Notes under the pieces: generated by a model | Told to the model about the DNA's origin: nothing | Databases searched by the model: none | What the model saw: the letters and a program-made list of their open reading frames with translations, nothing else | Shown here: positions 1,362-33,356 of the stretch, in pieces | How the letters are laid out: each line of letters begins with the position of its first letter | Position numbering within the stretch: position 1 is the first letter of the stretch | Position numbers and translations under genes: made by a program | Source: an uncultured Bacteroidota bacterium | Lineage (GTDB): Bacteria > Bacteroidota > Bacteroidia > Flavobacteriales > Flavobacteriaceae | DNA length: 37,149 bases | Direction of reading: 5' to 3' | NCBI GenBank assembly: GCA_902509675.1 | Contig: CABWYN010000010.1 | Span: 1-37,149 of the forward strand

Positions 1362-1898
1362 TTATTTTGAAATAGTTAAGTCGTCTAAGTAAAATTCTGT
1401 TCCCTTAGTCATATACCAGAATTTTACACCCTGATTATTACTATTTGATTTTAGATCGAAGGTGTGAGAGTATTTAGTCCAATCTTCAGTCAGTATAAAA
1501 TCCTTTCCTTGATAACTACCTTGAACATCAGACTGAATGACTACTTTCATCTTTCCATTCCCCCCTTTATTCTTAGCGTGAAAGGTAATTGTGATTGCAT
1601 CTCCTTCTTTACCCTTAAACTTTTGATTAAATTGTGAGCTTAGATGATAACCCTTGTCACCTAGCTGATGAGTTTCCACTTTGAGGGCCCTTTGACTGCC
1701 AGGGTTTGTATCAAAATCCTCAACCGAAAATGTAGCATCAGCACCATTACGTGTTACGCTATTCCACCACCAAAACTTACCCTCAGGGCTTACACCTTCC
1801 AAATTAGAATTCTTTAATTCAAATGTCTTTTGAGAAAATGAATCCGTGTAAAAAAATACCGCCATTAGAACTAGAGTAAATTTGATTGATTGTTTCAT
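1362..1898 (-). CDS. Stand-alone secreted carbohydrate-binding module (CBM4/9/22-like)
   Basis: The 178-residue product has a Sec signal peptide (about residues 1-22, ending FSQ) and then a single beta-sandwich domain of about 155 residues. Its layout resembles the CenC/CBM4_9 fold, with 'HAKNKGG' in mid-domain and the closing strand 'FYLDDLTISK'. It is clearly related to the N-terminal module of the GH30 protein in the same operon: both contain 'QSDV-GSYQG', a 'W-KY/RYTHTF' segment, a 'FWYM' segment and a '(F/Y)(Y/F)LD(D/E)' ending. There is no catalytic domain, lipobox or T9SS sorting domain, so it should end up periplasmic or released. It sits 24 nt after the beta-helix gene on the same strand. 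Glycan binding is inferred from the fold; the ligand is unknown. Confidence 0.85.
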   Translation of the reverse strand: MKQSIKFTLVLMAVFFYTDSFSQKTFELKNSNLEGVSPEGKFWWWNSVTRNGADATFSVEDFDTNPGSQRALKVETHQLGDKGYHLSSQFNQKFKGKEGDAITITFHAKNKGGNGKMKVVIQSDVQGSYQGKDFILTEDWTKYSHTFDLKSNSNNQGVKFWYMTKGTEFYLDDLTISK

Positions 1899-1922: not shown

Positions 1923-4430
1923 TTATTGTTTTACTAATCTTAAGATTTTTAATTGTCCTGTATTTATGTCTTCAAGTCTTAAAAAATATAAGCCTGGTTC
2001 AAGACTTGAAATATTGACAGAAATCGAATTGCTTTCAAAATTATTTATACTGTCTATTTTATACTTTTTACCTAATATATTATATAAAGAAATATTTGAA
2101 TTTGAATAAACATTATGAATATTAAGTATATCGTTAACAGGGTTTGGAGATAGAAATATATTTTTAATATCGTTTTCCGAAATGGAAAGAGGGTCAACTA
2201 CAGTAACCTCAACCTGACTGGTTGTAGAATTTCCTGAGCTGTCAGAAGCTGTAAAAATAACCAAGTATAATCCAGTTGTTGATGTATCTATATTGTGAGA
2301 AATTTCATAGCTAACATTACCATCACAATTATCTGTTACTGTTGGAGGTTCGATATCATCTACATCAAAAGTCGAATTTATCTCATATTCATAATTGCAC
2401 CCTGACCCTCCACAATCTGATAATTCCATTACAGGTGGGGTCGTATCATTTGCACATTCATTAATGGTAAACTCATATGCTCCAATATCAACAACATCTC
2501 CAAAGTTTTCAAAATCAACTGCTGGTGAGCCTTGAATAACAAGAGAAAAATCATCAATATAATAGTCAGCCCCAACACCTGCTTGAACAGGTGGTCCTTT
2601 TACATACAAAAATAAATTATCAGAAATGTCATGTGTAAAATCTGCAGTTAACAAAGTCCATTCTTGGTCTGAAGCTTCGACTGGCTCGGATAAACTATAA
2701 TACTCATTTTCGTCAGTATCCTTAATTGTCAACTGAGTAGTTCCTGTTTCGCCTTCAGCTAACTTTACCCAAACATAAAATGTATATGTTTCGCCCTGAT
2801 CCAATAAATTATTTAATACAATTCTAGGGCTATGCCAATTTGCTGTTCGATCTGTTGTAAAAAGACATCTATCACCCGATAATGATTCATCAGATGTGGT
2901 TTCGATTGTAGACCCAAATGCAGTCCATCCGCCAGTTGCATTTTCAAAACTTGTTGATGAAATAGCGCTACCCTGAACAGGTCTGGGGTTTCCGTTAATA
3001 TCATGAGTTGGGCTGTAACTTGGATTGCCTGAATTTATCGCTGGTGAACTTTCTGTGATTGAAAAGTCTGTTCCCTCAATAGTCAATTCACCGTAAACAG
3101 TTTCTGGTGCTGACACAAAAAGAGGGTCGCTATTTATTAGATTATTGCTTTCGGTTGCTGGCCATGCATAAGTTCCATTAACAATTATATTGTCAACAGC
3201 TACTCTTGAGCCGTATACATTATTTAATTGCAAGGCTGAAAACTCATTGTCTCTAGTTACAATAATATTATTTACAACAGTGGTGTTCAAAACATGGTTA
3301 GCTTTAATACCTCCAACTTTTTGACCTCTGTGTGCTGGGTTTCCTTCAGCAACAGAAATATCTTGTATGATTTCATGAACCCCATTATAGTAAAGTGTAT
3401 TGTTTTGATAAATTGCGGAAGCGGAGTGAGAATGGTCGAAATTAATCCCATTCTTTCCATTATTCAAACATAAATTATTTTCAAATAAGAAAGTCCCGTT
3501 ATATCCAGGGTCACTACGAGTCACATATATTCCCTGACCGTCCCAAATAGATTGGAAGTTTGCAGTTCCATAATCCGGATTATTATTTCCTGAATTATCA
3601 GGTAATTGTGTTACATAAAAACGAATTCTATTCCAATTATTATAAACAATGTTGCCTCTAATAATCATTTTAATATCAGAAGTATTGTCTCCATTTTGAG
3701 CAATAGACTCAGCTAAAACAATAGCGCTTGAAGCAGAAGAAGTCCACCAGTTTGAATTATAAACTATATTATTTTCTATTAATATATGATCACTATCATT
3801 AAACCGAATGGCTGAACCACAGGTGTCATGAACAATATTATTTCTGATGATAATGTGATGATGAGCGCCATAGCCTCCCCAAATCCCTTTTCCTCCAAAA
3901 TAAGAGTGGTTATAATTTGTAGAATCATCTTCATCTTCAGCCATCTCAATTTTATAATTTCTGTCTGCTTCTGCCATATCATAATCAATATTTTGAGCTG
4001 GACCTTCAACTTCAAAGCCCTCAATAATTATATAATTCATATTATTAGAAATAACGATACCGCCTCTTCCGTCAAATTGTATTTTAGGTGTATCACCAGG
4101 ATAATTTCTTAATGTAATATATGCATCTTCAGTTCCCGATTTATTTATGGTAACTACATGCTGATTATTCATGTTCGTGCTGGTTGAAGGATCAACATTG
4201 CCGTAATTGTTATTTTGATAAACTCCATCCATAACATACACTGTTCCTCCAGCATTTACCATGGAGACTCCTTTGTTTATTGTTTTAAAAGGAGAATCAA
4301 TTGTTCCTAAATTATTATCTGAACCGTTTGAATCTGAAATATAGTAATCTTGTGCGCACAGTATTTGTAAGCCAAAAGATAACATTATAGCTAAAAAATT
4401 TCTTTTCAATGTTAATTTCCTAATAGACAT
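1923..4430 (-). CDS. T9SS-secreted right-handed beta-helix protein with inserted CBM; candidate polysaccharide lyase/hydrolase
   Basis: The 835-residue protein begins with a signal peptide (about 1-27). Residues 28-480 form a right-handed parallel beta-helix: a DUF1565-like start ('GTIDSPFKTINKGV', 'GGTVYVMDGVY') followed by many 'I-NNIVY-N' rungs. Residues 460-485 and 638-653 together make the usual end of such proteins ('SSPAINSG', 'DINGNPRP', 'VDIGAYEF'), but a CBM4/22-like domain (about 490-633, ending 'YYIDDFSL') lies between them. An Ig/HYR-like domain (about 660-746, 'DTTPPV...TVTDNCDG') and a T9SS type A sorting domain ('FLSPNPVNDILNI', about 757-835) follow. Helices of this type occur in polysaccharide lyases and some glycoside hydrolases. 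I cannot assign a CAZy family or catalytic residues by eye. PUL context supports glycan degradation at the cell surface. Confidence 0.85.
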   Translation of the reverse strand: MSIRKLTLKRNFLAIMLSFGLQILCAQDYYISDSNGSDNNLGTIDSPFKTINKGVSMVNAGGTVYVMDGVYQNNNYGNVDPSTSTNMNNQHVVTINKSGTEDAYITLRNYPGDTPKIQFDGRGGIVISNNMNYIIIEGFEVEGPAQNIDYDMAEADRNYKIEMAEDEDDSTNYNHSYFGGKGIWGGYGAHHHIIIRNNIVHDTCGSAIRFNDSDHILIENNIVYNSNWWTSSASSAIVLAESIAQNGDNTSDIKMIIRGNIVYNNWNRIRFYVTQLPDNSGNNNPDYGTANFQSIWDGQGIYVTRSDPGYNGTFLFENNLCLNNGKNGINFDHSHSASAIYQNNTLYYNGVHEIIQDISVAEGNPAHRGQKVGGIKANHVLNTTVVNNIIVTRDNEFSALQLNNVYGSRVAVDNIIVNGTYAWPATESNNLINSDPLFVSAPETVYGELTIEGTDFSITESSPAINSGNPSYSPTHDINGNPRPVQGSAISSTSFENATGGWTAFGSTIETTSDESLSGDRCLFTTDRTANWHSPRIVLNNLLDQGETYTFYVWVKLAEGETGTTQLTIKDTDENEYYSLSEPVEASDQEWTLLTADFTHDISDNLFLYVKGPPVQAGVGADYYIDDFSLVIQGSPAVDFENFGDVVDIGAYEFTINECANDTTPPVMELSDCGGSGCNYEYEINSTFDVDDIEPPTVTDNCDGNVSYEISHNIDTSTTGLYLVIFTASDSSGNSTTSQVEVTVVDPLSISENDIKNIFLSPNPVNDILNIHNVYSNSNISLYNILGKKYKIDSINNFESNSISVNISSLEPGLYFLRLEDINTGQLKILRLVKQ

Positions 4431-7540: not shown

Positions 7541-8959
7541 TTAATAATGTAATTTAACATAATCTTCTTCCTTTAATTTACCCGTTAATTCTTCTGAAAC
7601 TTTATTCCATTTTGAATTTTTATCTAGCGGATGTAGAGTTGGTTTTATAACTGATATTGGATTATCCAAGACAAAATCGTTTTGATTTTTCATCCATTTT
7701 TCTAAAACATCGGATAATCTATTTCTGTGCTGTGTGTAATCACTGTTGTTTATTAAATTGTTTTTTTGGTAAGGATCTTTTTTTAAATCATACAGTTCTT
7801 CATATGGGATATTCGGAAAAGATTCAGCAGCAATTTTAGCAAATTCATTTACCACTGGATTTTCCCCAAGATTTGAGTCAACTACTTCAATTGAATTAAA
7901 ATTTCTGATTAATTTAAATCTCTTTCCCCTTACCATTCGAGAAGGAAATATTTTACATTCCCTAATATTTTGTTTTGTTGCAACGCCAAAAACATATTCA
8001 TTGATTTGTTCATTACTACCCAATAAAGTTTTTAAAAAACTTTTTCCGTCAATACTATTGGGAATATCCGTTTTAGCAGCCTCTAGTAAAGTAGGCAGAA
8101 CATCAACAAGAGTAAGTAAAGTATTTGATTTCATATTAGATTTAATTTTACCCGGCCATCTCACCACAAAAGGAACTTGAAGGCCTTGTTCAGACAGACC
8201 CCATTTTCCACTAAGACCATGATCAGACGCATAAAAAAACATCGAATTATCTTTATGTCCATGCCTGTCAACCATTTGTAAGACTTCCCCTAACTGATCA
8301 TTGTCATCTTGAATGTTTTGATAATACCCTGGCTTATGATTACCAACATAACCAGGGTCATATGGCAATTTATATATGTCCTGTTTGCTATAATTAGTTG
8401 TTTTTGGATAGGGGCCATGTGGAAAATCTGAAGCAATAATTAAACAAAATGGTTTATTCACGTTTTTTAAATAATCGTCAATTTTTTCTAAGGGTAAATA
8501 TCTGTTGTTTACCTTTGGAAAATAGTGGGTCCAATTAAAAACCTTGTTGGGCTTTACGTGACTTTTTCCTGCCAATACAACTTCATAGCCAGATTTTTTA
8601 AGTAAAGATGTGATACTTTTAATATCTGGCTTTACTCCAATATGATTTGCTAAACATCCATTTTTTACAGGATACATTCCAGTAAAAATTTGAGATCTAC
8701 TAGGAGCGCAAATGGCCTGGCCGGTATAAAAATTGTCAAACTTAAGACCTTGACTAACAAGTAAATCAACATTTGAGGTTTCCACATTTGGATTTCCGTA
8801 AGACCCATAATCTAATTTATCTTGATCATCTGCTAAATAAAATATTATGTTTGGTTTTTCAGAAATATCATTGTTTAAATCGTCTTCATTAGCCAATAGA
8901 CTAGTTAGTAAAACCCCAGATAAAAAGGCAATAAAATAAATAGATATTTTTGGTCTCAT
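7541..8959 (-). CDS. Sulfatase, S1 family (heparan N-sulfatase-like), periplasmic
   Basis: A 472-residue S1 sulfatase with a non-lipidated Sec signal (about 1-23, 'SLLANE'). Motifs seen are 'LADDQDKLDYGSYG' (metal ligands), 'ICAPSRSQIFTG' with nucleophile Cys84, 'GKSHVKP' and 'YASDHGLSGKWG'. The 'P-FVVRWPGK' segment is standard for the family. It resembles N-sulfoglucosamine sulfohydrolase-type sulfatases; the usual 'TPN-D-LA' segment reads 'TSNVDLLVSQ', a mild divergence. The start codon overlaps the GH30 stop as ATGA, so translation is probably coupled. With the other two sulfatases it gives the locus at least three desulfation specificities, presumably for different positions or sugars. 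The subfamily needs a SulfAtlas comparison. Confidence 0.92.
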   Translation of the reverse strand: MRPKISIYFIAFLSGVLLTSLLANEDDLNNDISEKPNIIFYLADDQDKLDYGSYGNPNVETSNVDLLVSQGLKFDNFYTGQAICAPSRSQIFTGMYPVKNGCLANHIGVKPDIKSITSLLKKSGYEVVLAGKSHVKPNKVFNWTHYFPKVNNRYLPLEKIDDYLKNVNKPFCLIIASDFPHGPYPKTTNYSKQDIYKLPYDPGYVGNHKPGYYQNIQDDNDQLGEVLQMVDRHGHKDNSMFFYASDHGLSGKWGLSEQGLQVPFVVRWPGKIKSNMKSNTLLTLVDVLPTLLEAAKTDIPNSIDGKSFLKTLLGSNEQINEYVFGVATKQNIRECKIFPSRMVRGKRFKLIRNFNSIEVVDSNLGENPVVNEFAKIAAESFPNIPYEELYDLKKDPYQKNNLINNSDYTQHRNRLSDVLEKWMKNQNDFVLDNPISVIKPTLHPLDKNSKWNKVSEELTGKLKEEDYVKLHY

Positions 8960-11118
8960 TCTTTAATTATTTTATGAATTACTTCTTTAAAATTATTTAA
9001 AGAATTGATTTTTATTAAGTATGTACCTTTTGCAAATGATGAGATATCTAATGTGTATTCGATTGAATCATTGATGTCAACTCCAGTTATTTTTGTGCCT
9101 TTTAAATCAAATAATTGAACTCTATAATTAGAGTGTTTTGGAAAAATTAAATTTATACGTCCGTGTGATGGATTGGGATATAATCTTACCTTGAATTCAT
9201 TTTCATTTATTTGATTAAAATCACCATTTGAAAGTGATTCATCAATGTTAAAAACAAAAGATGTTAAAGAAAGTTCAGGCAAGGTTGTTATAAAATACCT
9301 GTCATAATAATTGATTTCTTGCGTTCCAAGGGATGTGAATTCTTCTGAATCGTTATTAGTAGTTAGAATTCGCTCTACCGAAATTGCACCAAGTGGAATA
9401 TCCATCGAAAAGTCTTTTTCTTCGCCCTCGTTAAAAACTTGTAGTATGATTTTGGTATTGTCTTCTGAAATAAAAGCACCTGTATATATTTGATTGTCAG
9501 AGGAAGTATTTGATTGTATCAGACTATACCCTTTTTTGATAAGATTTGTAAAATGTTTAAATGTATAATACCTCTTTGGTAAAATAATTTCACCTACTGG
9601 AGTCCAGGCAACTAGACTAGAATATCCATCATTGTCCGCCTGCTCATAAAATAGGTGCATCATATACGCTGTCATTCCACCTTCATTAAACCCTCTTAAC
9701 ATCCACTTTATATAATTTGCTGCATCAGTCATTGACTGATCTGTACTGTTTAAGTTAGCTGATTCGGTAACCCAAACAGGTTTGTCATTTGATGCAATTT
9801 TTAATGCATTCCAATTTGCATTGTGATTTGCGTCTGCGTAGGTGTGCGTTCCTACCACATCAACCGCATTTTCAACCGCGCTGTTATTAAACATGCTATT
9901 TATGTAGTTTGTAGCTGATGTTGAAGAGTTTTGAGATTCTACTCTAAAACACTCTGGGGAAATAATCTTAATGTTATCTAGCCCTGAATTTGACAACCTA
10001 GCATTTAAGTTTATTAATATACTTGATAATTCTGAGGGTGTAGTATTCATGGACTCGTATGAAACCTCATAATCAGGCTCATTTGTAGGTGAAATTGCAG
10101 TGACTTCAATTCCATACCTAGACTCCATACCATTTAAAAATGCAACAAGAAATTCACTAAATTCTGATTCTCCTCCACTAATCAGAGTACCTCCACCATT
10201 ATGTTGGCCGTTGGTTTTAAGCCAGGCTGGGGCGCTGTTACAGTTACCGATTACGTGATCAAATCCATTAACACTTAAGTTAAAAGCATTTTGTAAGGCT
10301 TCACCAATATATCTAGTTCTCCAACTATTTGGATCACTATCATATCTTGTCCAATCTAGTTGTGTTTCATCTAAGCTATAAGGATCATCATTATCATTTT
10401 CAGGCTCTAAGTCGTGATAAACAAAAAACCTAATCATGTTAACCTCAAGGTCATTAAAACAATATTGTTCAATCTGCTCTCTAAATGAGTCATTTAATAC
10501 ATAGAGATCCTCAGTTCTTCTTTTAATTCCCGCTCCAAAACCATCAATTGTTTGAAATTTAATGTCCGGATCAAAAGTAACCCTTTCACCTGGTGAGACA
10601 CTAACCTCATCCAAAAAGTAGGTTACATCAGATTGCATGTACCAAAACCTAACTCTATTGTTATCGCTAGAATTTTCAACAGTGAAGGTGTGGGTATATC
10701 TTTTCCATTGATTGGTTACCCAAATATTTTGACCCTGATAACTTCCAGACACGTCAGATTGAAAAACCAATTTCATCTGCCTAGAATCTGCTCCAGAAAT
10801 TTTAGCATAAAAAGTCACTGTATACTTTTGGCCTGCCAAAACTTGAAAAGGATATTCGCTTTTAGAGCTAACATGCCATCCGTTTGCCCCTAATGAATGT
10901 ACTTCGCACTTCAAAGCCTTTGTACTACCCTGAACCAAATTATCTGTTTCAATTGAGTATGTTGCATCCCCACCCTCATTAGCTTGATGGCTCCAATATT
11001 GAAATTCATTGTTTTCAATATCCTCTAAGAAACCATTAGCAAGTGGAAGTTGGTTCTGGGAGGCAAGTGAAAGTATAGAAACACTCCAAAAAAATAATAT
11101 CTTTTTTATCATCTTCAC
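8956..11118 (-). CDS. T9SS-secreted GH30 family glycoside hydrolase with N-terminal CBM
   Basis: The 720-residue protein has a signal peptide (about 1-20), a CBM4/9-like module (27-176, with 'QSDVSGSYQG' and 'YFLDEVSVS'), a GH30 (beta/alpha)8 catalytic domain plus side beta-sandwich (about 180-625), and a T9SS type A sorting domain (about 642-720, 'VRLYPNPSHGRINL'). The GH30 call rests on 'TIDGFGAGIKR', the acid/base Glu347 in 'SPTNEPDY' and the nucleophile Glu452 in 'PVWVTESANL'. GH30 enzymes are retaining and include xylanases, beta-xylosidases, beta-1,6-glucanases and beta-fucosidases; I cannot fix the subfamily. MIKKILF two codons downstream is an alternative start. It is the first enzyme gene after the SusD terminator hairpin and overlaps the next sulfatase by ATGA. 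It should act on the outer surface as the locus's backbone-cleaving enzyme. Confidence 0.92.
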   Translation of the reverse strand: MKMIKKILFFWSVSILSLASQNQLPLANGFLEDIENNEFQYWSHQANEGGDATYSIETDNLVQGSTKALKCEVHSLGANGWHVSSKSEYPFQVLAGQKYTVTFYAKISGADSRQMKLVFQSDVSGSYQGQNIWVTNQWKRYTHTFTVENSSDNNRVRFWYMQSDVTYFLDEVSVSPGERVTFDPDIKFQTIDGFGAGIKRRTEDLYVLNDSFREQIEQYCFNDLEVNMIRFFVYHDLEPENDNDDPYSLDETQLDWTRYDSDPNSWRTRYIGEALQNAFNLSVNGFDHVIGNCNSAPAWLKTNGQHNGGGTLISGGESEFSEFLVAFLNGMESRYGIEVTAISPTNEPDYEVSYESMNTTPSELSSILINLNARLSNSGLDNIKIISPECFRVESQNSSTSATNYINSMFNNSAVENAVDVVGTHTYADANHNANWNALKIASNDKPVWVTESANLNSTDQSMTDAANYIKWMLRGFNEGGMTAYMMHLFYEQADNDGYSSLVAWTPVGEIILPKRYYTFKHFTNLIKKGYSLIQSNTSSDNQIYTGAFISEDNTKIILQVFNEGEEKDFSMDIPLGAISVERILTTNNDSEEFTSLGTQEINYYDRYFITTLPELSLTSFVFNIDESLSNGDFNQINENEFKVRLYPNPSHGRINLIFPKHSNYRVQLFDLKGTKITGVDINDSIEYTLDISSFAKGTYLIKINSLNNFKEVIHKIIKE

Positions 11119-28664: not shown

Positions 28665-31600
28665 TTAATTAATTTTTATTACACGTTTTGTTGAGGTTGA
28701 ATTTTGATCAGACACTTTTATTATATAAACGCCTTCTGAATACATGCTCATATCGATTTTTGAAATGTTAAAGTCTTGATAGAGCTTCTGACCTGTTAAG
28801 GAATAAATTTCAACATTGTATTTTTCTGAACGCCCGCTTATGTTAAGAATATGATTCACTGGGTTTGGATAAATTTTTATCGAATCGAATTCTATATTTT
28901 GAGGGCTGGAAAGGTTTGAATTATTAGGTGCATTAGGGCTTCCAAAGTCGTTAATACAGTCCCAATTTTCCGCATTATAGTTGTCCAAATTAGGGTTAAT
29001 TAATTCAAGTGTATAGCCTGTACCGTCAGCACACGAAGGCCAGTCCGAAATGTTTTCAAAGCAATTTGCTAATACATTTTCCCCTTCAAGGGTGTCTCCA
29101 AATTCTCCAAATGAAATTAAATCTCCAACACCATCAATAATTTCCCAAGACACTTCTGAAGACCAAGATCCATCAGTCCAAGCAAGTTCTATTGTTGCTC
29201 CGTGCATTATTTCAAATTGTATACTTGCCGAAGCCCCATCATCAAAAGTTGCTTGGGAGTATATAGTTTGGCCGTCGGCAATAATATCTACTGCGTTTCC
29301 TTGCCATCCATCGCCATAGGAATCTATCATGTTTAAAGTATGATTACAATCAGAGCTATAATCCTCAATATCATAATAAACTTCATCTATAAGTTTACTT
29401 GTTGAATTAAATAGTCTTACTGCATCAGAGCCGCCAAGACCAAACCCTAACTCGCCTATAAATGGAATTCCTGGATAAGCATTGCTAAAGTCTGATTCAT
29501 TCTTAACAACTACTAAAAACCCTTCTGGCTCAATTACTGTTGATTGAGGAATATTATAAACATGATTGTTATTGTCGTCTTTGATTTGCCAATTTGATAA
29601 GTCAATAGCATATGATTTTGGATTATATAATTCTAGCCAGTCATTTGGGCTAAAGTCTTCGTCAGATCTATAATTAATCTCATTTATTATAACTGATTCA
29701 ATTTCGATTCGAACTGAATCCTCAAAAGAACATATTTCTTGTGAGTCGTTTACCACAATATTATAAAGTCCAGACGGCAATTCAGTAAAGAAATTGTCTT
29801 CATAGAAATTTTGCCCCCCATCAATACTGTATTGATAAGGGCCAACTCCCGAGCTAGGAATTATCGTTATGCTTCCATCAGTTGAAATACTAGATGGAAC
29901 TCCGATAACTTCAAAGTCTACGGATGTTAAGCTACAAGATTCAATTGTAACATTTTGCTCAAATATACACGCGCCGGCAGATCCAATTATTGAAACATTG
30001 TAATCTCCTGCTGATAAATCTGCAAAACCACTTGTTTCAAAAAATGACTGCCCTCCATCAATACTATATTGGAATGGGCCAACACCAGACGATACAGCAA
30101 TTGAGATATAACCATCTTCAGACTCTTCAGAGCTTGTGTTGGTGACGTCAATTTCAGCTAAAATTTCACATGCATTTTCGTCTAAACAAAATGTTTCCTG
30201 TGTGAAATTTTCGAAAGCTCCATTATTCTCAAAAATCATATTGCCGCTTGAATCAAGCATCATGAAGTCGCCTTCTCCATAGCCACAACAAATTCCATCA
30301 CCATATGAGTCAAAGAAATCTAGCGTAAAACAAGATTCGTAATTGACACAAATTTCTTCAGTATAATACTCACTATCTGAATTTAAAGAGCCTGCAGAAA
30401 TAACTTCATTTGTATTATTATCATATAATTTCCAAGAGGTTTCCTCTGGATAATCATCCGGGTTAATAATAAAAGTAATTGTGTCATAAGACGACTCAAG
30501 TGATGTTGTGGTTGAAACATTGTTGTTGATTGTATTCTGATCATTTTGGGTGTTAACAGAAAATAAATCAAATGTTATTTCATTTGATTCTTGAAGGTTT
30601 TGATCTATGATTATTGTTATAATTTCTTGATCTAAATAAGGAATATCGGCAAGTGTGTAACTTTCAAAAGATGATAAGCCGTTAACCTGAATCTCCATTT
30701 CAACTTCGTTTATTATCTCGTCTCCGAGATTTGAAATAATTAAATCAATTTCGACTATTTCGTCACATAAGACTCTAACATTGTCAATTTCTAAAGCTCC
30801 GTCAAACTGCAGTATATTGCTTATTGTGGTTGTCAGCGAATCATTATTCTCATACACATCATCGGGGTGACTAACATTAACCGTAACATCATAATCGCCG
30901 TTATTTGATAAATCTATAGGCACTGAAAATTGAAAATCGGATTCATTAAAAGGCTGAATTGTTTCTGAAATGGTAATTGTTTCAAGTGTTTGTTCGTTTA
31001 ATATAAGTTCAATATCAAATTCACTCATATCGTTTAAACCATTATTTGAAATTGTAACGGTAACCAGTTCATCATCGCTAAGACCAGACGATGTTACCGG
31101 ATTAGTAATTCCTTCAACAGCCAAATCATAATCGCCAACTATATCTGCCCAAAAAGAAACCCATGGTCGAGCTTGCTTAATAGCTAATTGATTTTGAGCT
31201 GTTACTTTGTATTCAATGTCCATAGCAAAGTCCTCTTGACCGGCAACATCATAAAGAATTGCAAATTCATCATGAATTACAGTCAAGTAGTCTCGCATTT
31301 GATCTAAATACTCTTCATCCATTATTAGCTCGCCAGCATTGACCAGGTTTGAGAGTCGAAGAACTAGATAGCCTCCAGATTGAGACGGGTCTCTGTATAG
31401 TAAAATTTCTTCTGGAACAGAATTTGGATCAGGATTCGTAATTAATGATTCTCCAACCTGAGTGTTCAAGTAGAATGTCTCTTCTGTTTCGTAAATGGGA
31501 TCAATACTAATTCCCACTCCATTTGATTGCTCCTGCTGAAAATTGGGGTGACAAAGTAAACCCATAGCTGCAGTGAAATGATCAATTCTATAAAAATCTC

Positions 31601-33356
31601 TTTCCTCATAAGCTCTAAAATTCCACATACTAGCGTATACTTGTTTTACAGATTTTGAAATATGCCCCTCGTCTGGGTATTGGGTTTTAGATGTGTACAA
31701 ACCTGCTCCACTAAAACCCGGCAGATCTTCATTATTTGTGCTAGATCTGACCCTAACAGCTGTTCCCTCGGGGAAACCGTCATGCATTGCTTGCAAGTCA
31801 TCTAACATCCACTGAGGCATTGGTGCATCTTTGATCGCTGTTCTTAGCATTTCCAAACGACTAACCCTAAAATTGATATCATTTTGAAAGCTTGGATTGT
31901 CAATGATTGTTTGAACTTCCTCATAAAAATTATTAAACTGCATGAATTCATCATAATAATAAAATGGTATACCGAATCCGTTGGGAATGGTGCCGTTGGG
32001 AAATTCAAAAGTCCGCATCGTTGAAACATTAGAACATTTTGCTCCAAATGCTGTTGACATTTCAAAATCAATTTCGTCTAGCGGTAATATCTCAGTAAAG
32101 CTTAGATCACGAATCGGAAACTGAGGTTCAGATGGCCTTATGTTTTCATACCAATCATTGACTTCATCAAGAGTGGCTTCTCTAATCTCATAACTGTCGT
32201 TCTCTACCTTATAATATATATATCCGTTCAAAAGATTTGCTATTTCATTTATTGACAAGGGATCCGCTATGTATGCATTAGGAACATTGTCTTGGATGGC
32301 ACGAAGATTTACGTGAGATAGTGGGGTTTGAATGACTGATGTAATTATTCCGCCAACCCTTGGCAATGAGTTTGGAAGGGCGTCGTAAAGAACTATGTCT
32401 CTACTCCCAGGGGTCTCACTAAGATTTTCCATGTGTCTGAAAAAACCGTATCCTTCTGACAAATGAAAGGGTATGTAGTTTACCTCCGCGAAAACATCAG
32501 TTTCTAAAACCACATCAAATCTAGAGTCTACAAATTGATCTGCATAATTATTAATGTGATTGTTTTCATCTGCCTGACCAATAAAATGATTCATATTGTT
32601 TTGTAAAAAAGGCATGCTTGCTACCAACAATTCATAGGTTCTCTGCGTATTTTCAAAATTATATGCATCCCCAAAAGAAAAATTAAATGAATATGTCCCT
32701 ATAATCCCGTTTGGCATAATAGTATTTGGGTTAAAAACAATCTCACCTGACGCATCATCACCTGTGACTGTAGCGTCTATTCCATTCCAAAAGCTAGCAT
32801 GAATTGTGTAGGTATTGCTGTTTATAAAATAAACTTTTGGCTCAGGTGTATCTCTATCCAAAATTCCAAACTTAACATAAAGCTGATCATCTAAAAATGG
32901 AGCCCAACTAACATTATTAACTGTAGCCAATTCCATAAATGTATCAGCATCAGGAATAGATGTTGCCCCGTCAATAAAATCAATTGCGCCGGCATTATTG
33001 AAAGGTGAGTCGGTTGGCATATTATTAAATTCTGTAATGTCGTCAATTCCATCACCATCATAATCGTCAGGATCATTGACATTATGCTCTGTGATAGAAT
33101 AGTTTTCTAGCGGATATGCTTGTGACGGCTCCGAGATGATCATAGTACCGTTTACTCCAATTGTTAGGGATGATGCCCAATTAAATTCTGAGTTGTGCTG
33201 AGCATGAAGAACGTAGTATTTACCTTGCTGACCCTGGATCGACAACTGAACTTGTCCAAGGTTATTAACGGAATAGTTGTCAATCGTCACATTTTGGGCA
33301 AAACAAAAAATTTGACAAAAAAATAAAAAAATAGCTGTTAGTAAATAGTTCTTCAT
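28665..33356 (-). CDS. Giant T9SS-secreted protein with glucan-water-dikinase-like phosphohistidine and ATP-grasp domains
   Basis: The 1,563-residue protein has, in order: signal peptide (1-20); a 'DYDGDGIDD' calcium-loop-like stretch (98-106); a PEP-utilizer-type phosphohistidine domain (about 318-385) with His348 in 'TPLSHVNLRA'; a PPDK/PEP-synthase-type ATP-grasp domain (about 430-735) with 'GAKCSNVSTM', 'VRSSTNNEDLPGFSGAGLY', 'SNGVGIS', 'DIEYKV' and 'IKQARPW'; two CARDB-like domains (about 742-950); a DSYGDG module (about 1003-1058); two SprB-like repeats (1063-1220); a lamin-tail domain (1221-1480) interrupted by another DSYGDGW module (1336-1432); and a T9SS sorting domain ('IKIYPNPVNHILNI', 1490-1563). 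The His-then-ATP order and 'SHV-(S/N)-(V/L)-RA' match glucan water dikinases, and the pyruvate barrel of PPDK is absent. The catalytic positions I can compare are kept. Function outside the cell is unknown. Confidence 0.9.
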   Translation of the reverse strand: MKNYLLTAIFLFFCQIFCFAQNVTIDNYSVNNLGQVQLSIQGQQGKYYVLHAQHNSEFNWASSLTIGVNGTMIISEPSQAYPLENYSITEHNVNDPDDYDGDGIDDITEFNNMPTDSPFNNAGAIDFIDGATSIPDADTFMELATVNNVSWAPFLDDQLYVKFGILDRDTPEPKVYFINSNTYTIHASFWNGIDATVTGDDASGEIVFNPNTIMPNGIIGTYSFNFSFGDAYNFENTQRTYELLVASMPFLQNNMNHFIGQADENNHINNYADQFVDSRFDVVLETDVFAEVNYIPFHLSEGYGFFRHMENLSETPGSRDIVLYDALPNSLPRVGGIITSVIQTPLSHVNLRAIQDNVPNAYIADPLSINEIANLLNGYIYYKVENDSYEIREATLDEVNDWYENIRPSEPQFPIRDLSFTEILPLDEIDFEMSTAFGAKCSNVSTMRTFEFPNGTIPNGFGIPFYYYDEFMQFNNFYEEVQTIIDNPSFQNDINFRVSRLEMLRTAIKDAPMPQWMLDDLQAMHDGFPEGTAVRVRSSTNNEDLPGFSGAGLYTSKTQYPDEGHISKSVKQVYASMWNFRAYEERDFYRIDHFTAAMGLLCHPNFQQEQSNGVGISIDPIYETEETFYLNTQVGESLITNPDPNSVPEEILLYRDPSQSGGYLVLRLSNLVNAGELIMDEEYLDQMRDYLTVIHDEFAILYDVAGQEDFAMDIEYKVTAQNQLAIKQARPWVSFWADIVGDYDLAVEGITNPVTSSGLSDDELVTVTISNNGLNDMSEFDIELILNEQTLETITISETIQPFNESDFQFSVPIDLSNNGDYDVTVNVSHPDDVYENNDSLTTTISNILQFDGALEIDNVRVLCDEIVEIDLIISNLGDEIINEVEMEIQVNGLSSFESYTLADIPYLDQEIITIIIDQNLQESNEITFDLFSVNTQNDQNTINNNVSTTTSLESSYDTITFIINPDDYPEETSWKLYDNNTNEVISAGSLNSDSEYYTEEICVNYESCFTLDFFDSYGDGICCGYGEGDFMMLDSSGNMIFENNGAFENFTQETFCLDENACEILAEIDVTNTSSEESEDGYISIAVSSGVGPFQYSIDGGQSFFETSGFADLSAGDYNVSIIGSAGACIFEQNVTIESCSLTSVDFEVIGVPSSISTDGSITIIPSSGVGPYQYSIDGGQNFYEDNFFTELPSGLYNIVVNDSQEICSFEDSVRIEIESVIINEINYRSDEDFSPNDWLELYNPKSYAIDLSNWQIKDDNNNHVYNIPQSTVIEPEGFLVVVKNESDFSNAYPGIPFIGELGFGLGGSDAVRLFNSTSKLIDEVYYDIEDYSSDCNHTLNMIDSYGDGWQGNAVDIIADGQTIYSQATFDDGASASIQFEIMHGATIELAWTDGSWSSEVSWEIIDGVGDLISFGEFGDTLEGENVLANCFENISDWPSCADGTGYTLELINPNLDNYNAENWDCINDFGSPNAPNNSNLSSPQNIEFDSIKIYPNPVNHILNISGRSEKYNVEIYSLTGQKLYQDFNISKIDMSMYSEGVYIIKVSDQNSTSTKRVIKIN
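29697..30170 (-). repeat. Two tandem SprB-like repeats inside the giant T9SS protein
   Basis: Residues 1063-1141 and 1142-1220 are two copies of a ~79-residue unit. Both contain 'SSGVGP(F/Y)QYSIDGGQ(S/N)F(F/Y)E', then '(D/E)L(S/P)(A/S)G(D/L)YN', and end with an E-S or I-E-S boundary. The DNA copies are diverged, so the duplication is old. Units of this kind are the repeated adhesin modules of flavobacterial surface proteins such as SprB. Confidence 0.8.

What the first reader, a model, noticed from the sequence alone, without database searches (positions are those of the whole stretch)
2475..3053. Carbohydrate-binding module inserted inside the terminal cap of the beta-helix enzyme
Beta-helix proteins of this type usually end 'SSPAINSG...DINGNPRP...DIGAYE' within ~40 residues (the choice-of-anchor-Q pattern). 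Here 'DINGNPRPVQGS' and 'VVDIGAYEF' are separated by a complete CBM4/22-like domain of about 145 residues. It is the second nested-domain case in the window, in an unrelated protein, suggesting that insertion into exposed loops is a recurrent way these secreted proteins gain modules.
Basis: partly seen in the sequence, partly recalled or inferred. Interest (0 to 1): 0.5.

Follow-up and report, generated by a model that had tools for sequence, protein, structure and literature searches.

The report
Sugar-binding module nested in enzyme cap
A secreted marine bacterial protein that probably helps digest sulfated xylan carries a xylan-binding-type (CBM22-like) module spliced into the middle of its end cap; the splice is real, happened once, and is shared by all close relatives found, but nested binding modules are already known in other polysaccharide-degrading enzymes.

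Summary
Confirmed. In the 835-aa protein window:1923-4430(-) the choice-of-anchor-Q cap motif is split: its first half ends at residue 484, 'DVVDIGAYEF' resumes at 645, and a complete CBM22-like domain (about 487-632) lies between. Joining the flanks raises the cap-model score from 29.2 to 44.1 bits. More distant relatives (27-41% identical) have the uninterrupted motif, 11-13 residues apart; orthologues at 49% or more in which both halves can be read carry the domain at the same site. The interrupted proteins form one clade with one change of state. Among 140 cap matches in 201 Flavobacteriaceae genomes only this orthologue group is interrupted, so 'recurrent' is not supported at this site, although one orthologue (L085) has a second CBM in another beta-helix loop. 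The gene lies in a putative sulfated-xylan locus whose gene set, including 'a PL9 with a CBM22', is published (PMC6794258); nested CBMs are known in Xyn10C-like GH10 enzymes and SusG. The predicted model agrees with the cap re-forming, but contacts could not be measured. A real, single, ancient insertion; new variant of a known kind; modest interest.

The parts
1923..4430 (-). Complete ORF, 835 aa: signal peptide, PL9-like right-handed beta-helix, split cap with nested CBM22-like domain, HYR/Ig-like domain, T9SS sorting tail
4353..4430 (-). Putative signal peptide, residues 1-26
   Evidence: read from the sequence (hydrophobic stretch ending ...LQILCA-QDYY); no predictor was run
2979..4352 (-). 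Right-handed parallel beta-helix domain, residues 27-484, PL9-like fold
   Evidence: Pfam PF22842 at residues 24-112; AlphaFold model, most helix blocks pLDDT above 80; Foldseek matches to Pel9A 1ru4 and 5olq/5olr; profile match to PL9 proteins, 97.6%
2979..3065 (-). First half of the choice-of-anchor-Q cap, residues 456-484 (FSITESSPAINSG...DINGNPRP)
   Evidence: NF041518 positions 17-50 of 58
2535..2972 (-). Inserted CBM22-like domain, residues 487-632
   Evidence: Pfam CBM_4_9 E=3e-22; PDB profile hits to CBM22 4xup 4.9e-26 and 1dyo 5.2e-13; Foldseek 4xuo TM 0.85 by target length
2499..2534 (-). Exit linker, residues 633-644
   Evidence: low-confidence segment in the model (model residues 617-619 below 50)
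2469..2498 (-). Returning second half of the cap, DVVDIGAYEF, residues 645-654
   Evidence: V647-E653 invariant in 8 orthologues; joining it to the first half restores the cap profile
2199..2447 (-). HYR/Ig-like domain, residues 662-744; present in the window protein and L007, absent from the other rows of A1
   Evidence: Pfam matches below the gathering scores
1926..2150 (-). T9SS type A C-terminal sorting domain, residues 761-835
   Evidence: TIGR04183 and PF18962

Best explanation
This is a secreted (T9SS) PL9-like beta-helix protein of a putative sulfated-xylan utilisation locus in a marine flavobacterium. In the common ancestor of its orthologue group a CBM22-type domain entered the loop between the last two elements of the C-terminal cap, just before the DIGAYE segment, and it has been kept since. 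Shown: the split motif, its restoration on joining the flanks, the CBM22-like fold, the single origin, and the conserved locus. Inferred: that the DIGAYE segment folds back to complete the cap, so that both CBM ends are held by the end of the helix and the module sits on it as a fixed platform; that the CBM binds the polysaccharide (xylan-type, possibly anionic) and brings it to the helix; and that the helix is catalytic.
For: Split cap profile and its restoration on joining. Uninterrupted relatives L015-L020 and the paralogues in L043 and L052. Insert of the same length class at the same site in all orthologues with both halves readable, and no other large insert except in L085. One change of state on the tree, clade support 100 by SH-aLRT. 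CBM22 fold. AlphaFold model mean pLDDT 87.3; the DIGAYE block at 74, between a linker block at 59 and a tail at 34, with a DSSP bridge at residue 648. Locus: SusC, SusD, GH30, three sulfatases, and in orthologous loci GH10, GH43, an FGGY sugar kinase and sugar transporters downstream; this matches the published 'GH30, three sulfatases, a PL9 with a CBM22, a GH10 and a GH43_1' pattern (PMC6794258).
Against: Contacts between the two cap halves were not measured: the tools return no coordinates, and the cap and linker are the less confident parts of the model. The model of an uninterrupted paralogue was uninformative at its cap, pLDDT about 33-57. Residues aligned to the PL9 calcium ligands and catalytic lysine are not conserved, so enzyme activity and its type are unproven. 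Two polar ligand positions of CBM22 differ (R25 to F/W, E138 to K), so xylan binding is unproven.
Confidence: 0.8

Rival explanations
1. The cap was truncated and the CBM appended; DIGAYEF belongs to the linker after the CBM and no longer forms part of the beta-helix, so the arrangement is sequential rather than nested.
For: The 611-620 block of the model before DIGAYE has low confidence (59) and contacts could not be inspected.
Against: The segment after the CBM is exactly the missing end of the cap profile (29.2 to 44.1 bits on joining); it is invariant over seven residues in the eight orthologues of A2 and near-invariant in A3, and the model confidence rises again there.
Confidence: 0.12
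2. The insert is a recurrent, mobile module: binding domains repeatedly invade exposed loops of these secreted proteins.
For: L085 has a second CBM_4_9 domain in frame in a beta-helix loop (window-protein position 395), about 46-49% identical to cap CBMs of other orthologues.
Against: At the cap site one event explains all cases, and no other interrupted cap was found among 140 cap matches in 201 family genomes. L085 is one contig of one MAG.
Confidence: 0.2
3. The split is an assembly or annotation artefact.
For: None found beyond the window being part of a 56.5%-complete draft genome.
Against: The same in-frame architecture is present in dozens of independent genomes, MAGs and single-cell assemblies.
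Confidence: 0.01

Closest known systems
'PL9 with a CBM22' in sulfated-xylan PULs of marine Bacteroidetes (Kruger et al. 2019, PMC6794258)
   Same: Same module content and same gene set: GH30, three sulfatases, GH10, GH43. In the window itself GH30, the three sulfatases and SusC/D were identified; GH10 and GH43 were seen in orthologous loci L023 and L039.
   Different: The section read lists the modules but does not describe the CBM as nested in the cap. No sequence from that paper was compared here.
Xyn10C-like GH10|CBM4 xylanases of gut Bacteroidetes (PMC7848910)
   Same: Binding modules of the CBM4/22 kind inserted inside a catalytic domain, in a xylan locus; the paper calls the insertion a common feature of such systems.
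   Different: Tandem CBM4 in the beta3-alpha3 loop of a TIM barrel, not one CBM22-like domain in the end cap of a beta-helix.
SusG amylase with CBM58 inserted in its B domain (cited in PMC7848910)
   Same: A CBM nested within a glycan-degrading enzyme of a Bacteroidetes utilisation locus.
   Different: Different fold, site and substrate.
PL9 pectate and rhamnogalacturonan lyases (Pel9A 1ru4, 5olq)
   Same: Beta-helix with the same N-terminal region and, in the PL9 proteins aligned, a C-terminal (I/N)(D/N)AG...APDLG.(I/F)E ending that resembles this cap.
   Different: No nested CBM in those proteins; the calcium-binding aspartates and catalytic lysine are not conserved here.
CBM22 of Paenibacillus barcinonensis Xyn10C (4xuo, 4xup) and Clostridium thermocellum xylanase (1dyo)
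   Same: Fold and sequence profile; positions W53, Y103, Y134, Y136 mostly aromatic here.
   Different: R25 is F or W and E138 is K in nearly all members, so the ligand may differ.

Membership tests
choice-of-anchor Q domain (NF041518) | Profile score above the curated cut-off | tested here: met
   32.7 bits vs 25
choice-of-anchor Q domain (NF041518) | Contiguous match through the DIGAYE end | tested here: not met
   match stops at position 50 of 58; 160 residues separate the halves; restored on joining
CBM22 | CBM22 fold and sequence profile | tested here: met
   Pfam CBM_4_9 covers the wider group
CBM22 | Aromatic ligand positions W53, Y103, Y134, Y136 | tested here: met
   532 W/Y/F in 39 of 39, 577 Y or F in 34 of 39, 607 F/W/Y in 39 of 39, 609 Y or F in 38 of 39; that these are ligand positions is from my own knowledge of the family
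CBM22 | Polar ligand positions R25 and E138 | tested here: not met
   505 is F or W in 39 of 39; 611 is K in 38 of 39; equivalence read from the alignments to 1dyo, 1h6x and 1h6y
CBM22 | Binding of xylan | not testable with these tools
   needs a binding assay
PL9 | Beta-helix homologous to Pel9A | tested here: inconclusive
   PF22842 36.3 bits vs cut-off 25.2 but only model 5-92 of 370; profile comparison 97.6% probability over the helix
PL9 | Calcium-binding aspartates and catalytic lysine (PMC6627557) | tested here: not met
   NSDDGFD has no counterpart and the GFK lysine falls at DGQGIY (Y302), though the alignment there is gapped
PL9 | Lyase activity | not testable with these tools
   needs an enzyme assay
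T9SS substrates | C-terminal sorting domain | tested here: met
   TIGR04183 31.6 bits vs 23
Sulfated-xylan PUL of PMC6794258 | GH30, three sulfatases, PL9+CBM22, GH10, GH43 | tested here: met
   first part in the window; GH10 and GH43 seen only in orthologous loci L023 and L039, past the point where the window ends

The most novel reading that the evidence does not exclude
The nested CBM is a fixed reading head with a cleft altered for anionic (sulfated) xylan (R25 to F/W, E138 to K), rigidly set on the end of a beta-helix whose active site is not that of PL9, making a new kind of enzyme for sulfated xylan in which the binding module is structurally part of the catalytic domain.
Probability: 0.2. 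Interest if true: 0.55.

Novelty: new variant of a known kind. Interest (0 to 1): 0.33.

Why it matters
It gives a clean, single-origin example of a binding module gained inside the structural cap of a beta-helix rather than appended to an end, with uninterrupted relatives available for comparison, in a locus that bloom-associated marine bacteria are thought to use on sulfated xylan. It also warns that profile-based annotation reports such proteins as sequential domains ('PL9 with a CBM22') and misses the nesting.

Tried and rejected
Artefact: rejected, dozens of independent assemblies share the architecture. Recurrent insertion at the cap: tested by a survey of NF041518 in 201 family genomes; the eight matches ending at position 51 or earlier were the seven orthologues plus one in G040, read as a degenerate but uninterrupted cap. 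A second structure model, of an uninterrupted paralogue, for comparing the caps: cap confidence too low to use. PF22842 search in 101 family genomes found nothing at E 1e-20; the phylum-wide search gave the PL9 proteins used. A tblastn search of plasmid records gave only weak partial relatives. Literature: eight searches; none of the passages read describes a CBM nested in a beta-helix cap; subscription papers are not held.

Full report
The protein. The finding lies in an 835-residue ORF on the minus strand, window 1923-4430. The window is contig C10 of a draft genome of 1.08 Mb, 56.5% complete. Pfam and NCBIfam give, in order: a Pel9A-like beta-helix match at residues 24-112, a choice-of-anchor-Q match at 456-490, CBM_4_9 at 489-612, a weak HYR/Ig-like stretch at 662-744, and a T9SS sorting tail at 761-835.

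The split motif. The cap model NF041518 is over its cut-off but stops at position 50 of 58, where the CBM starts. The rest of the motif, DIGAYEF, occurs at 648-654. When I joined residues up to 484 to 645 onward, the match ran from 17 to 57 of 58 and rose to 44.1 bits; the left half with its natural continuation into the CBM gave 29.2 bits. A shorter joined stretch, written after the cap of L007, gave 43.7 bits.

Homologues. Searching 400 genomes of the family with residues 27-486 gave orthologues at 60-92% identity by the search table and more distant relatives at 30-41%; recomputed by blastp the distant ones are 27-35%. In the alignment, all eight interrupted rows have the CBM between GNxRP and DIGAYE, while L015-L020 go straight from one to the other. 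A scan of the species-genome collection brought 75 loci. A motif search on these shows separations of about 170-187 residues in the orthologues wherever both halves were recognised, against 11-13 in uninterrupted relatives whose left half fits the pattern. Several rows of that table list a larger or missing distance because the left-half pattern did not match or because the contig ends. For L077, L078, L083, L085 and L089 I read the region: the CBM follows the cap's first half in each, but in L077, L078, L083 and L085 the sequence ends before DIGAYE. Pairwise alignment to the window protein found no other insert of 60 residues or more within residues 27-660, except in L085 and a masked run of X in L089. 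Broken or partial frames (second ORFs in L055 and L056, L084, L090) were not used for the claim.

Single origin. A maximum-likelihood tree of the beta-helix region alone (49 rows, quick search, SH-aLRT only) puts the 41 interrupted rows in one clade with support 100, and the insertion needs one change of state. The tool warns that long outgroup branches meet. SAR92/Porticoccaceae and Cellvibrionales copies form one group inside the interrupted clade, which suggests transfer of the already interrupted gene between Flavobacteriaceae and Gammaproteobacteria.

Is it recurrent? NF041518 has 140 matches in 74 of 201 family genomes (my sum of the per-genome column). Eight end at position 51 or earlier: seven are orthologues of this protein, and the eighth, in G040, reads as a degenerate but uninterrupted cap. 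The survey would miss inserts placed elsewhere in the cap. One orthologue, L085, has a second CBM_4_9 domain in frame at window-protein position 395, in a beta-helix loop, besides the cap one. It is at most 49% identical to the cap CBMs and sits on a long branch among them. It is a single contig of a single MAG.

What the insert is. Profile and phmmer searches of the PDB put it nearest to CBM22, and Foldseek on the predicted model agrees (4xuo, TM 0.85 by target length). From the alignments with 1dyo and its variants 1h6x and 1h6y, which differ from it at R25 and E138, I read W53, Y103, Y134 and Y136 as residues 532, 577, 607 and 609, which are mostly aromatic in the 39 sequences, and R25 and E138 as F505 (F or W in all) and K611 (K in 38 of 39). 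A change of ligand toward an anionic glycan is my inference.

What the helix is. It is PL9-like: the N-terminal region matches PF22842, Foldseek finds Pel9A and the PL9 rhamnogalacturonan lyase, and a profile comparison with six PL9-type proteins from other Bacteroidota gives 97.6% probability over the helix. Those proteins carry DGFG or DGIG, NSDDG(F/Y/I)D and DG(N/T)GFK. A paper on a PL9 enzyme names three calcium-binding aspartates and the catalytic lysine (PMC6627557); I matched the motifs to those residues by spacing. In the window protein the aspartate cluster has no counterpart and the lysine position falls at DGQGIY, invariant Y302; the alignment there is gapped, so this is a negative of moderate strength. 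Catalysis is therefore likely from context but not shown.

Structure. AlphaFold on residues 27-660 with 39 sequences gave mean pLDDT 87.3 and pTM 0.74. The last blocks are 59 (model 611-620, linker), 74 (621-630, DIGAYE) and 34 (last four residues). DSSP marks a bridge at model residue 622, which is D648. This fits a segment that docks, but its partner is unknown because coordinates are not returned. A model of the uninterrupted paralogue in L043 had cap confidence of about 33-57 and could not serve for comparison.

Context. The upstream genes in the window are three sulfatases, a GH30/GH59-type enzyme with an N-terminal CBM, SusD and a SusC-like receptor (named from its sequence, and its place beside SusD). 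BLAST shows these genes kept in many orthologous loci, with more distant orthologues keeping SusC/D and often one sulfatase. Past the point where the window ends, loci L023 and L039 have GH10, an MFS sugar transporter and GH43, and L039 also an FGGY kinase and a sodium:solute symporter. Kruger et al. [quoted passage not shown] The window fits that pattern.

Novelty. CBMs nested in catalytic domains are known: tandem CBM4 in Xyn10C-like GH10 xylanases, which that paper calls a common feature of xylan systems, and CBM58 in SusG (PMC7848910). The module pair here is also published. In the papers I could search I found no account of a CBM nested in a beta-helix cap. I rate it a new variant of a known kind.

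Noticed in passing
L085:2174-4489 (ORF residues about 419-572): An orthologue with a second CBM_4_9 domain inserted in frame in a beta-helix loop at the position of window-protein residue 395, besides the cap CBM.
   Followed up: partly
L062, L063, L065, L067, L076, L079, L080, L082: SAR92/Porticoccaceae/Cellvibrionales copies of the interrupted protein nest within the flavobacterial clade, which suggests gene transfer between phyla.
   Followed up: partly
window 1362-1898 and 8956-11118: The 178-aa protein next to the finding matches the GH30-type proteins of orthologous loci at 31-39% identity, as if it were a stand-alone copy of their N-terminal binding module.
   Followed up: no
window 2199-2447: An HYR/Ig-like domain between cap and T9SS tail is present in the window protein and L007 but absent from the other rows of alignment A1.
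   Followed up: no
L015:1165-3330(-): An uninterrupted relative carries a CBM_4_9 domain near its N-terminus (residues 47-160) instead of in the cap.
   Followed up: no
window 28665-33356: A 1563-aa protein with a T9SS tail, a PPDK_N (ATP-binding) match at 437-731, and CARDB, SprB and lamin-tail matches: an unusual mixture.
   Followed up: no
L131-L136: PL9-type proteins from other Bacteroidota end in an (I/N)(D/N)AG...APDLG.(I/F)E segment that resembles the choice-of-anchor-Q cap, so the two caps may be related.
   Followed up: no
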